DNA from: Ignisphaera cupida
GTDB lineage: Archaea; Thermoproteota; Thermoprotei_A; Sulfolobales; Ignisphaeraceae
Direction: 5' to 3'
NCBI RefSeq assembly: GCF_030186535.1
Contig: NZ_JASNVW010000003.1
Location: forward strand, 1-64,000
DNA: 64,000 bases
Under the pieces are notes generated by a model. That model did no database searches and was not told the origin of the DNA. It saw only the letters and a program-made list of their open reading frames with translations. Positions 6,492-25,655 of this stretch are shown here, piece by piece. The position numbers and the translations under genes are program-made. Every line of letters begins with the position of its first letter. Position 1 is the first letter of the stretch.

Positions 6492-7256
6492 TCACTTCTT
6501 TTTCAACTTGCTCAATCTTCTCAAAAGCTCTAAATCCCCTTGATAATCACCAGCACATGTTGCTATAATTCCATCCACAAGCCCTTCAAGCTTCTCTGCA
6601 TATGCAGCTGAATTATCTAAATCTGTTGTTGGAGCCCAGCCAATTCTAGCAAGTATTTCCGCATTCCTCGGTGTTTTAATCAAGAAATATGTGTATAGTG
6701 GAATATTGAGCTTCCTCATTTCTGTTGACAACTGCTCTAAAACTGGTAGTGTCTCATTTGTTAATCTCATGAAGAATGCGAAGTCCCACCCAGTTTTAAC
6801 CCTGTTGACCATGTCTTCAACACCAAACTGCTTCACCCCATACCTCTCTCTCCATGGACGTGGTGATAGAAGACAACCAAGCTTTACACGTCTTAGCTTA
6901 ATCTCATTTCTTAGAAAGTCTCTTGCATCCTCTGACTTCTTCCAGTATTTAGGTGCCAAAGGCTCTCCATACTTAGGCTCATCACCAAATGTTAAAACAA
7001 GACCATCTAATCCAACAGCATCAGCTGCAAGTGCAAGTGCCCCAACCTCTACAGGCCCCTTGTAATTCAGTATAAATATTGGCATAACAATTTTATCTGG
7101 ATACTTAACCTTTAAAACACATCCAACAGCAGTACCACTTGGAGCTGGTACACCAGCAGCACTATCAGTAATGTTCCATCCATCAACAAGATCCTTAGTT
7201 TCTTCAGCCATTTGAAGGAATTTTCTAGTTGGAACAAACTCGTGAAGTATTTTCAT
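6492..7256 (-). CDS. Methylene-tetrahydrofolate/methanopterin reductase-like protein (MetF family)
   Basis: A 254-residue TIM-barrel-type protein resembling the methylenetetrahydrofolate reductase family (PF02219). It contains an N-terminal EFVPTRK segment with Glu, DGWNITDSAAG near residue 26, LTFGDEPKYGE near 90 and a C-terminal barrel. In the Wood-Ljungdahl pathway this enzyme makes the methyl group used by the corrinoid protein. No MetV partner or F420-dependent Mer is next to it, so electron donor and pterin are unknown. The ATG at 7256 has GGTG six nt upstream and a strong TATA box near 7298, so it has its own short-leader transcript despite lying at the distal end of the cdh locus. It converges with the DRTGG gene. 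Family membership is fairly secure; the exact reaction is inferred. Confidence 0.7.
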   Translation of the reverse strand: MKILHEFVPTRKFLQMAEETKDLVDGWNITDSAAGVPAPSGTAVGCVLKVKYPDKIVMPIFILNYKGPVEVGALALAADAVGLDGLVLTFGDEPKYGEPLAPKYWKKSEDARDFLRNEIKLRRVKLGCLLSPRPWRERYGVKQFGVEDMVNRVKTGWDFAFFMRLTNETLPVLEQLSTEMRKLNIPLYTYFLIKTPRNAEILARIGWAPTTDLDNSAAYAEKLEGLVDGIIATCAGDYQGDLELLRRLSKLKKK

Positions 7257-7302: not shown

Positions 7303-7349
7303 CTTTTGTATCTTCATAAAATTCATTGTTTAGCTACATTTAGCTACCC

Positions 7350-7580
7350 AATGGGTGCAGAGCGTTTCCCCGCTAACGGTACTTCTAATAAATACTTGTA
7401 AATATCTTTAGTTCCGTTAGCGGGGTTGGCCCTAGGCTTGGAGTCACCAGCTTCGCCCAAGCCGCATGGGGTCCTGTCGAGCCCAACGCCACGGGGCTCC
7501 CATCTGCTCTCACTTGGTTGTTTTCTGCTGCCCCTCAACGCAGTGCGAATCACTGGAGCAGCCCTCTGCCCCAACCAAGC
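7350..7580 (-). ncRNA. GC-rich structured RNA of unknown class
   Basis: About 230 nt of strongly GC-rich sequence in an AT-rich region with no credible protein. Paired segments seen (plus coordinates): 7513-7520 with 7572-7579 (8 bp); 7527-7534 with 7555-7562; 7541-7545 with 7551-7555; 7479-7484 with 7494-7499, extended by 7466-7469 with 7500-7503; 7435-7441 with 7457-7463; 7368-7379 with 7414-7425 (12 bp, perfect). GCAGAG at 7357-7362 can also pair with 7564-7569, closing the whole molecule or forming a pseudoknot. One helix position is a G-U wobble on the minus strand but A-C on the plus strand, favouring minus. A TATA box lies 20-26 nt upstream. I looked for RNase P (GAGGAAAGUCC type) and SRP (GGAAGG with GCAGC) core motifs and did not find them. 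Confidence 0.72.
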
Positions 7581-7598
7581 AATTATAGTGATAAGAGA

Positions 7599-7606
7599 TA
7601 TTTAAA
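7599..7606 (-). promoter_or_regulatory. TATA box for the structured RNA
   Basis: TTTAAATA on the minus strand, preceded by an A/T-rich BRE-like CGATAAA. It sits 20-26 nt before the first paired base of the GC-rich RNA, which is the normal archaeal TATA-to-start distance. This is the main argument that the RNA is an independent transcript on the minus strand. Confidence 0.6.
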
Positions 7607-7716
7607 TTTATCGCTAAACCGGCAACAGCCTATCTAAAGGAGTTTCTCCATGTTTTCGATTCTTAGAGAGGAATGGAACAGATGTATTTAATAGGTGATG
7701 CAAACATGTTTTGCTT

Positions 7717-8493
7717 TTAGTCAATTAATTCTATGTTTCTTGCTATTATTCTAGCTGATTCAACAGCTTTGCTGTGTTTAGGTAGGTCTAGCAGTGGCTT
7801 TCCCTCCATACTGTATTTCAGTATCAGATCATCATCTGGAATTGTGCCAGCATATTCATAGCCTAGTTTCTTCACATAGCTTTCAACTTCTGAAACAAGA
7901 TTTTGTGGTAGTCTATTTCCAACAGCATAGAATTTGTCTGGATTTATCTTCACCTCTTTGGCAATGTTAATAATTCTTTCAGCTGTTTTAATGCTCATTA
8001 CTGATGGATCTAAAACAACTATCATTGTGTTTACATGTCTATCAACTCTTCTATTCAAATGCTCAAGACCAGCTTCCATATCCATTAAAACAACGCTATA
8101 GTTCTTCACCAAACCAGTTAAGATAGTGGTTAAAACAGAGTTTACATAGCAATAGCATCCCTCGCCCTCACCTCTACCCATTGCGATAAAATCAAAAAAC
8201 TGAGACTCAAACAAACAGTCTCTCATAATCCAGTAGTTTAGCAGCGATATTTTGTCGAATCCAGATAGCGTGAATTCATCAATTCTCTTCCTAAATTCCT
8301 CAACAACATCACCAACTGTTTTAGCTATCTTTATCCCAAGAACATCTGGAAGATTTGTTGCAGGATCCGCATCAACTACAAGTATTGTGTCACTAATACT
8401 GCTCTCTATCAGAACTTTCAGTAGTAGTGCTGTCAAAGTTGTTTTTCCAACACCGCCCTTGCCAGAAATAGATGCTATGTAGGGTCTTTTCAA
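7717..8493 (-). CDS. cooC: CooC-like nickel-insertion ATPase (second copy)
   Basis: A 258-residue MinD/CooC-type P-loop ATPase. It has the deviant Walker A SGKGGVGKTTL near residue 10, DADPATNLPDVLGI near 41, a Cys-Tyr-Cys pair (EGCYCY near 111) matching the CXC nickel/zinc-binding motif of CooC, and VLMDMEAGLEHL as the Walker B region. CooC proteins load nickel into carbon monoxide dehydrogenase or, as AcsF, into acetyl-CoA synthase. A second copy at the far end of the cdh locus suggests one serves the CODH C-cluster and the other the ACS A-cluster, though which is which is inference. The TTG start has GGTG seven nt upstream. It follows the RACo-like gene by 18 nt. Confidence 0.85.
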   Translation of the reverse strand: MKRPYIASISGKGGVGKTTLTALLLKVLIESSISDTILVVDADPATNLPDVLGIKIAKTVGDVVEEFRKRIDEFTLSGFDKISLLNYWIMRDCLFESQFFDFIAMGRGEGEGCYCYVNSVLTTILTGLVKNYSVVLMDMEAGLEHLNRRVDRHVNTMIVVLDPSVMSIKTAERIINIAKEVKINPDKFYAVGNRLPQNLVSEVESYVKKLGYEYAGTIPDDDLILKYSMEGKPLLDLPKHSKAVESARIIARNIELID

Positions 8494-24828: not shown

Positions 24829-25539
24829 CTAAGCAGGTGTAATGATTGGTATGACCTCTACTCCCAATCTTTTTGCAAGTGAGTGTGTGTCTGGATCTAT
24901 AAACCCAGCTATTATTACTAGTTTTGGCTTAACCCCTTCTCTCCTCTCATATAACAAGCCTATTTTGTGAAGCTCTGAAACATCTGCTTTTGATGCTCTA
25001 GACTTTACCTCTATTAAAATATGCTCCCTGTCTTTGATGGCCACATCAACTTCAACAATTGATGGATATCCATAGACAAAACCATCATCATCTCTATAAA
25101 CCCACTTCTCAACTTTTGCAACCCCAAGAACATCTTCAACAACATACTTCATGGCTTGTCTAAAAGACTCTTCACTTATAACACCAAATCTATGAGCAAT
25201 GATAACAACAACCCTTCTGGTTTCTCTCAGTTCCTCCTCGATCCTGGCAAACCTGTTTTCAAGTTCTAAAAACCTTTTCTCTAAATCAGCAAACCTCTCC
25301 TCTAATTTCAACATTCTCTCCTCCAACTTCGATACTCTCTCCTCTAATTTAGTAAACCTCTCCTCTAAATCAGCAAATCTCTCCTCAAGTTTAGCGAATC
25401 TCTCCTCAAGTTTTGTAACTCTATCAAGAATTTCGCTAAAGCCAAGCAAACCCATTAAGGCATAGCGAAACTCTTTATCAACTTCAAGAGTTTTTAAAAT
25501 CCTCTCCTTCTCCTCTGGAGATAGAGTAGGTGAGGCCAC
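24829..25539 (-). CDS. DUF3782 coiled-coil protein with PD-(D/E)XK nuclease-like domain
   Basis: A 236-residue protein. Residues 1-40 are a helical head. Residues 42-104 are nine near-identical heptads (consensus KLEERFA) forming a long coiled coil. From about 105 a restriction-endonuclease-like fold follows: helical FGVISEESFRQAM, then D165 (VEVDVAIKD) and E177-x-K179 (ILIEVKSR), the PD-(D/E)XK active-site pattern. DUF3782 proteins are numerous in Thermoproteota and their role is unknown. Nucleic-acid cleavage or binding is inferred. It is a stand-alone gene, with no methyltransferase partner nearby. Confidence 0.75.
   Translation of the reverse strand: MASPTLSPEEKERILKTLEVDKEFRYALMGLLGFSEILDRVTKLEERFAKLEERFADLEERFTKLEERVSKLEERMLKLEERFADLEKRFLELENRFARIEEELRETRRVVVIIAHRFGVISEESFRQAMKYVVEDVLGVAKVEKWVYRDDDGFVYGYPSIVEVDVAIKDREHILIEVKSRASKADVSELHKIGLLYERREGVKPKLVIIAGFIDPDTHSLAKRLGVEVIPIITPA
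25228..25416 (-). repeat. Nine tandem 21-bp units coding a heptad coiled coil
   Basis: Each 21-bp unit encodes a heptad such as TKLEERF, AKLEERF or ADLEERF. The units keep high DNA similarity (repeated ctctcctc runs on the plus strand), which suggests repeat expansion or slippage. Unit number probably varies between relatives. Confidence 0.8.
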
Positions 25540-25655
25540 TTCAGATACCCATCTACTTTTCTATACATTAACCCAATTCATTAAATTCACAGTAACTATA
25601 TTGCTACATAGTTAATAAGCTTTGTCTAGGATTAATCTATATGTGTTGAACTCTT

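What the first reader, a model, noticed from the sequence alone, without database searches (positions are those of the whole stretch)
7350..7606. Unclassified structured RNA with its own promoter inside a CODH/ACS locus
A 230-nt GC-rich block on the minus strand, with at least six stems, one long-range pairing (7357-7362 with 7564-7569) that could close the molecule or form a pseudoknot, and a TATA box at the right distance. A G-U wobble on the minus strand versus A-C on the plus strand supports its orientation. I saw no RNase P or SRP core motifs. It lies between a CooC gene and a MetF-like gene, so it could be an RNA regulator of the C1 pathway or a conserved housekeeping RNA.
Basis: seen in the sequence. 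Interest (0 to 1): 0.7.

Follow-up and report, generated by a model that had tools for sequence, protein, structure and literature searches.

The report
Mobile element carrying orphan guide RNA
The structured RNA is a tiny non-autonomous transposon (a 269-nt IS607 derivative) that kept only the guide-RNA scaffold of its parent's TnpB nuclease; it is one of about a dozen copies in this Ignisphaera genome and is absent from the same spot in relatives, so it is a selfish element and not a regulator of the neighbouring C1 genes.

Summary
The block is real, structured and on the minus strand, but it is neither a single-copy riboregulator nor a housekeeping RNA. Window 7362-7630(-) is a 269-nt miniature transposon (MITE) of the IS607/TnpB kind. 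There are about a dozen copies in this Ignisphaera genome and more in half of the sampled genomes of its order; syntenic gaps in two congeners are empty.

It has three retained pieces: a left end with a TATA-like box, a 36-nt kink-turn-like hairpin, and a 147-nt block with the 3' end of tnpB and the right-end palindrome. Autonomous relatives encode an IS607 serine recombinase plus a divergent TnpB (no zinc-finger cysteines, RuvC-II glutamate relocated). Rfam has no match, yet the stems covary strongly. At least three MITE lineages independently deleted the RuvC-III codons but kept hairpin and 3' block, suggesting that what survived is an omega-RNA/reRNA scaffold working in trans with a TnpB encoded elsewhere. 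The guide would be the flank 7361-7342, which matches only its own site.

IS607-linked MITEs were published for Staphylothermus (2009). New here: the guide-RNA reading, the k-turn inside tnpB, the convergent deletions. Transcription, TnpB loading and L7Ae binding are untested.

The parts
7362..7630 (-). Whole element: IS607-derived MITE (GGCTGTT...GGGGAAACGC), 269 nt
   Evidence: Dispersed repeat in own genome, in 13 of 31 genomes searched (own plus 30 relatives) by BLAST and 76 of 147 genomes of the order by covariance model; absent from the syntenic gap in G003 and G005; boundaries
7573..7633 (-). Left end (LE) with AGGCTGTT start
   Evidence: 84% identical to the left end of the tnpB-bearing copy L011; conserved in sibling copies
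7600..7606 (-). TATA-like box TTTAAAT inside the LE; predicted transcript start about 7577 (inferred)
   Evidence: Conserved in nearly all copies; no transcript data
7527..7562 (-). Kink-turn-like hairpin GCUGCUCC-AGU-GA-U-UCGC-ACU-GCGU-U-GA-GGGGCAGC, derived from tnpB codons (P)xVIRxA(V/L)(R/K)G
   Evidence: Present in most MITEs and in most tnpB genes examined; 7 of 8 outer-stem pairs show compensatory changes, 91% of cells paired against 78% in shuffles
7508..7526 (-). Deletion junction: about 90 nt of tnpB (RuvC-III codons DRDxxGAxNI) missing compared with tnpB-bearing copies
   Evidence: Hairpin-to-core distance 47 nt here against 136-139 nt in most tnpB copies
7361..7507 (-). 3' scaffold block: tnpB 3' end plus right end
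   Evidence: 82% identical to the tnpB copy L011; covariance model match 163.6 bits, E = 4e-45, though the window is one of the 26 training sequences
7479..7499 (-). Helix H1 (7499-7495 with 7483-7479)
   Evidence: 95% of cells paired
7429..7472 (-). Helices H4 (7472-7469 with 7432-7429, outermost pair broken in the window copy) enclosing H3 (7462-7455 with 7443-7436)
   Evidence: Compensatory changes at 5 pairs
7368..7425 (-). Right-end palindrome, 12-bp stem CCCCGCUAACGG / CCGUUAGCGGGG
   Evidence: Fold z = -5.3; compensatory changes at 4 pairs
7342..7361 (-). Putative guide segment (host flank beyond the right end)
   Evidence: By analogy with omega-RNAs/reRNAs (PMC10278001, PMC11061315); first 16 nt have an exact match only at this site in the genome

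Best explanation
Window 7362-7630(-) is a non-autonomous miniature element derived from a crenarchaeal IS607-family insertion sequence that encodes a serine recombinase TnpA and a divergent TnpB with a relocated RuvC-II glutamate and no zinc-finger cysteines. It kept the two ends needed for mobilisation and the guide-RNA scaffold of TnpB: a kink-turn-like hairpin plus the 3' block with the right-end palindrome. It lost tnpA and nearly all of tnpB. Most likely mechanism: transcription from the LE TATA box (about 7577) gives an RNA running through the right end into host flank. A TnpB encoded elsewhere in the genome (nearest: the intact 430-aa protein at contig C1:452612-453901) binds the scaffold and uses about 20 nt of flank as guide. 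It then cuts the element-free version of this site, helping the element persist. Shown here: family, mobility, covarying structure, recurrent retention of the scaffold, and a possible partner protein. Inferred: transcription, processing, TnpB loading and cleavage, and any L7Ae binding to the kink-turn.
For: Multicopy in own genome and across the order, 76 of 147 genomes. Sibling copies carry tnpB with the RuvC-III motif. Autonomous relatives have tnpA of the IS607 type ('YKLSEFARVLGVSRSAVIKW...YARVSGGTQRDDLERQV') directly upstream of tnpB. The TnpB hits TIGR01766 above its curated cut-off and is 36% identical (E = 8e-45) to a canonical TnpB of the same genome that is Pfam-positive. Blastn shows three retained blocks against the parental elements. 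The MITEs are polyphyletic on a core-block tree: window groups with L011-tnpB, L009-L016 with L017-tnpB, the G004-type with L173-L178-tnpB; no support values were inspected. Covariation: 0 of 500 shuffles reach the covariation score. Empty syntenic sites in G003 and G005. Invariant D190, E324 and D377, with G279 at the canonical glutamate position.
Against: No RNA-seq: transcription is not shown. No test of TnpB activity was possible. The TnpB scores only 51.6 bits against a cut-off of 100 for the curated guided_TnpB model, matches no Pfam family and has no significant solved homologue by sequence, so RNA-guided cleavage by this subfamily is unproven. Several congeners (G002, G005, G009, G010) hold model matches but no tnpB hit at 1e-20, so many copies may be dead relics. 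The RuvC-II reassignment rests on sequence alignment only.
Confidence: 0.86

Rival explanations
1. Dead MITE: the element is mobilised (or was) by IS607 TnpA through its DNA ends, and the internal RNA-like structure is only a fossil of tnpB and the right end, with no RNA function now.
For: No transcript data; some genomes have copies but no resident TnpB of this family; MITEs need only their ends for transposition in trans (established knowledge).
Against: At least three lineages deleted the RuvC-III codons yet kept the hairpin about 150 nt inside the right end; stems covary between MITEs, which no longer encode TnpB; the window hairpin keeps a full 8-bp outer stem with a sequence different from its parent's (GCUGCUCC/GGGGCAGC against GCCCCCUC/GAGGGGGU).
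Confidence: 0.25
2. Domesticated guide RNA that silences or regulates a gene (TldR-like), perhaps in the CODH/ACS cluster.
For: Position between two C1-pathway genes on the same strand.
Against: Empty orthologous sites; 16 nt of the guide match only their own site, other matches have 3 mismatches; the metF-like gene has its own TATA-like TTTATATA that is also present in relatives without the element; the TnpB keeps D, alternative E and D, so it need not be nuclease-dead.
Confidence: 0.03
3. Independent housekeeping or regulatory RNA of the C1 locus, as proposed by the first reader.
For: Strong folding, no Rfam match.
Against: Dispersed repeat with tnpB-bearing parents; not conserved at the locus.
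Confidence: 0.01

Closest known systems
IS607-linked MITEs of Staphylothermus marinus (14 copies of about 260 nt; PMC2678158, 2009)
   Same: Same size, related crenarchaeote, non-coding, associated with IS607-family elements; the model finds copies across the order
   Different: There described only as inverted-repeat MITEs similar to sequence upstream of transposase genes; no RNA, no tnpB 3' scaffold, no kink-turn. Direct homology to this element was not tested on the named record
IS607 TnpB reRNA (RAGATH-18-derived RNA; ISFba1, PMC11061315)
   Same: Guide RNA scaffold of an IS607 TnpB with the guide at its 3' end; RAGATH-18 is also described as containing a possible kink-turn; AG-rich TAM beside LE
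   Different: RAGATH-18 reRNA lies wholly outside the tnpB coding sequence; here both hairpin and 3' block overlap tnpB codons, and no RAGATH-18 (or any other relevant) Rfam model matches
IS200/IS605 omega-RNA (ISDra2 type; PMC10278001, PMC8612924)
   Same: Scaffold overlaps the 3' end of tnpB and ends at the transposon right end, followed by the guide
   Different: Transposase here is an IS607 serine recombinase, not the Y1 HUH enzyme; the scaffold seems to include a hairpin upstream of the RuvC-III codons
Ealt TnpBs / Fanzor-like RuvC organisation (PMC10711439)
   Same: Canonical RuvC-II glutamate missing (G279), invariant glutamate E324 seven positions before the place of the first zinc-finger cysteine
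   Different: No CxxC zinc finger and no DPG motif at RuvC-I (mostly D-V/I-N here)
PATEs (palindrome-associated transposable elements of IS200/IS605; named in PMC7290912, PMC3119063)
   Same: Non-autonomous derivatives of TnpB-bearing elements that keep palindromic ends
   Different: Parent here is IS607

Membership tests
IS607-family MITE | Multicopy non-coding element sharing both ends with an autonomous IS607 element | tested here: met
   Left and right ends match tnpB-bearing elements
IS607-family MITE | Parent encodes IS607 serine recombinase (N-terminal HTH, then YARVS catalytic motif) | tested here: met
   ORFs upstream of tnpB in L169, L170, L173-L176, read by motif, not scanned against a profile library; N-terminal part also in L017 of the own genome
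IS607-family MITE | Insertion polymorphism (empty site) in relatives | tested here: met
   Gap 125 and 181 nt in G003 and G005 against 464 nt
TnpB omega-RNA / reRNA | Overlaps or adjoins the tnpB 3' end, same strand, ends at the right end | tested here: met
TnpB omega-RNA / reRNA | Conserved RNA secondary structure | tested here: met
   Covariation
TnpB omega-RNA / reRNA | Expressed, bound by TnpB, guides DNA cleavage | not testable with these tools
   Needs RNA-seq, RNP purification, cleavage assay
RAGATH-18 (Rfam) | Match to the Rfam covariance model | tested here: not met
   No Rfam family matches in window or in tnpB-bearing parents apart from an unrelated tRNA
Kink-turn (k-turn) | Canonical stem, 3-nt bulge, tandem G-A/A-G, non-canonical stem | tested here: met
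   Sequence pattern in window, most MITEs and most tnpB genes examined; weaker outer stem in G004-type MITEs; 3D kink and L7Ae binding not tested
TnpB nuclease (partner L011) | RuvC D-E-D triad | tested here: inconclusive
   D190 and D377 invariant; canonical E replaced by G279; E324 invariant at the alternative site; geometry not modelled
TnpB nuclease (partner L011) | Curated family score | tested here: inconclusive
   TIGR01766 49.3 over its cut-off 32; NF040570 51.6 under its cut-off 100; no Pfam match
Housekeeping RNA (RNase P, SRP) | Rfam match | tested here: not met

The most novel reading that the evidence does not exclude
Crenarchaeal IS607 elements use a kink-turn-containing guide RNA, encoded partly inside tnpB, that recruits the host protein L7Ae as a cofactor. 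Repeatedly, the guide RNA has broken free as stand-alone MITEs, giving the cell a dispersed set of trans-acting TnpB guides that each defend their own insertion site.
Probability: 0.3. Interest if true: 0.7.

Novelty: new variant of a known kind. Interest (0 to 1): 0.45.

Why it matters
It removes a false lead (a C1-pathway riboregulator) and replaces it with a widespread RNA family that Rfam does not hold: guide-RNA-only IS607 MITEs and their parents, with matches in about half of the sampled genomes of the order. The recurrent deletion of RuvC-III codons with retention of the kink-turn and the 3' block is a natural experiment that outlines the minimal guide RNA of a divergent, glutamate-relocated TnpB clade, and it makes a possible role of L7Ae in TnpB biology directly testable.

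Tried and rejected
Rfam with gathering and E-value thresholds, including on tnpB-bearing parents: nothing relevant. Rejected the long-range closing pair: most of its 3' arm is host flank. Rejected orientation from folding energy: both strands fold about equally well. Sigma-70 promoter or intrinsic terminator scan: none found, and an archaeon would not be expected to show sigma-70 sites. RNAalifold on a looser 37-sequence set gave a poor consensus; the tighter 26-sequence set worked. The genome-contig search found only distant TnpBs. The PDB sequence search gave no significant homologue. L7Ae RIP-Seq (PMC5539422) and the archaeal circular omega-RNA paper (PMC12558985) contain no transposase/mobile-element or no L7Ae/kink-turn/MITE text respectively by term search. 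No structure prediction was run for the L011 TnpB because loci fetched by the genome search and the fetch from genomes are not on the tool's list of permitted sources. A second empty-site comparison (copy at C6:53324) was compatible with absence in G005 and G006 but not clean.

Full report
What is there. On the minus strand between the CooC-type ATPase gene (7717-8493) and the gene at 6492-7256 lies a GC-rich block that folds better than 200 shuffles (z = -3.4). The plus strand does as well, so energy alone does not orient it. No Rfam family matches, even at E = 10.

It is a repeat. Searching the window's own genome (1.74 Mb, 14 contigs) gives about ten further copies matching 140-150 nt at 75-83% identity, plus partial matches and left-end matches. 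Copies occur in 13 of the 31 genomes searched by BLAST, the own genome included, and by covariance model in 76 of 147 genomes sampled from the order.

It is a mobile element. In G003 and G005 the orthologous cooC-metF gap is 125 and 181 nt and holds no element, against 464 nt here. In all three species a TTTATATA-like box stands just upstream of the metF-like gene, so that gene probably has its own promoter and the insertion is likely harmless.

Its parents are IS607 elements with tnpB. Two own-genome copies carry, between the conserved blocks, the TnpB RuvC-III motif. Autonomous relatives in the order encode a serine recombinase with the N-terminal HTH and YARVS motif typical of IS607 TnpA, followed by tnpB. 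The TnpB passes TIGR01766 but not the stricter guided_TnpB cut-off, and has no Pfam match. It is 36% identical to a canonical, Pfam-positive TnpB of the same genome. Across ten members D190, E324 and D377 are invariant and the canonical glutamate position is G279; the zinc-finger cysteines are missing. This resembles the relocated-glutamate (Ealt) organisation described in PMC10711439. That catalysis survives is an inference.

Anatomy. Compared with parental elements, the MITE keeps three blocks: the left end (7633-7573) with TTTAAAT at 7606-7600; a short piece of tnpB (7553-7523) around the hairpin 7562-7527; and the 147-nt 3' block (7507-7361). The element runs GGCTGTT (7630) to AAACGC (7362); most copies with a clear left end have A before GG.

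The hairpin has the form of a kink-turn: stem, 3-nt bulge, GA, U, short stem, loop, short stem, U, GA, stem. It occurs in most MITEs and in most tnpB genes examined, where it is encoded by codons for (P)xVIRxA(V/L)(R/K)G. Its outer stem is rebuilt with different sequences: 7 of 8 pairs have compensatory changes, and 0 of 500 shuffles and no slid control reach the covariation score. In the G004-type MITEs the outer stem is weaker. The window copy has a full 8-bp stem unlike its parent's.

The 3' block covaries too: 10 pairs with changes on both sides among 26 MITEs, 94% of cells paired, 0 of 500 shuffles reaching the covariation score. Relatedness inflates such shuffle tests, but slid controls drop to at most 0.07 from 0.28.

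Convergence. On a tree of the 3' block, the window MITE sits with the tnpB copy L011, the main own-genome MITEs with L017, and the G004-type MITEs with L173-L178 (short alignment, no support values inspected). In most tnpB copies the hairpin starts 136-139 nt before the block; in MITEs mostly 29-47 nt. Thus at least three lineages removed the RuvC-III codons but kept hairpin and block. Together with covariation in copies that no longer code for protein, this is the main argument that an RNA function was preserved and that this RNA is the TnpB scaffold.

Mechanism proposed. The LE TATA drives an RNA that continues through the right end into host flank; TnpB supplied in trans uses the flank (7361-7342) as guide, as established for omega-RNAs and IS607 reRNAs (PMC10278001, PMC11061315). 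The first 16 nt of that guide have only their own exact match in the genome, as expected for an element guarding its own site and against a gene-regulatory target. In G002, G005, G009 and G010, model matches exist without a tnpB hit at 1e-20, so many copies may be relics.

Relation to what is known. IS607-linked MITEs of about 260 nt were reported in Staphylothermus marinus in 2009 (PMC2678158), without an RNA interpretation. IS607 reRNA in bacteria is RAGATH-18-based, with a possible kink-turn, and lies outside the coding sequence (PMC11061315). The present RNA overlaps tnpB and matches no Rfam model. The one search for TnpB with kink-turn or L7Ae listed no paper joining them among the ten shown, but the library omits most subscription journals. 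I therefore rate it a new variant of a known kind.

Limits. No transcript, binding or cleavage data; hairpin called a kink-turn from sequence pattern only; tree without support values; E-values of the home-made model are rough and the window was in its training set.

Noticed in passing
G000 C3:84406-84703, C1:503699-503985, C1:505882, C1:112739, C1:73968, C1:127585, C2:226604 (L019-L025): A second TnpB element family in the same genome, with canonical Pfam-positive TnpB and a different right end (...CTAGGGACAAACGG), also with several copies that appear to lack an intact tnpB upstream: a parallel MITE family.
   Followed up: partly
L011 (G000 C1:452586-452731): The apical loop of the right-end palindrome is the reverse complement of that in the window copy, as if the loop had flipped by recombination across the palindrome.
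   Followed up: no
L015 (G000 C1:101836-101988): One MITE copy ends within a few bases of a tRNA-like start (GGCCGGTAGCTCAGCTGG), so it may sit just upstream of a tRNA gene.
   Followed up: no
window 6492-7256 (-): The 'MetF-like' gene has no Pfam or NCBIfam match at 1e-3 although it is 75-88% identical in seven congeners; its annotation as MetF-like is unproven.
   Followed up: partly
window 25524-25616 (-): Very weak second match to the RNA model (11.8 bits, E = 0.075), probably chance.
   Followed up: no
G009, G005, G010, G002: Genomes with model matches but no tnpB hit of this family at 1e-20: orphan guide RNAs without a resident partner, or relics.
   Followed up: partly
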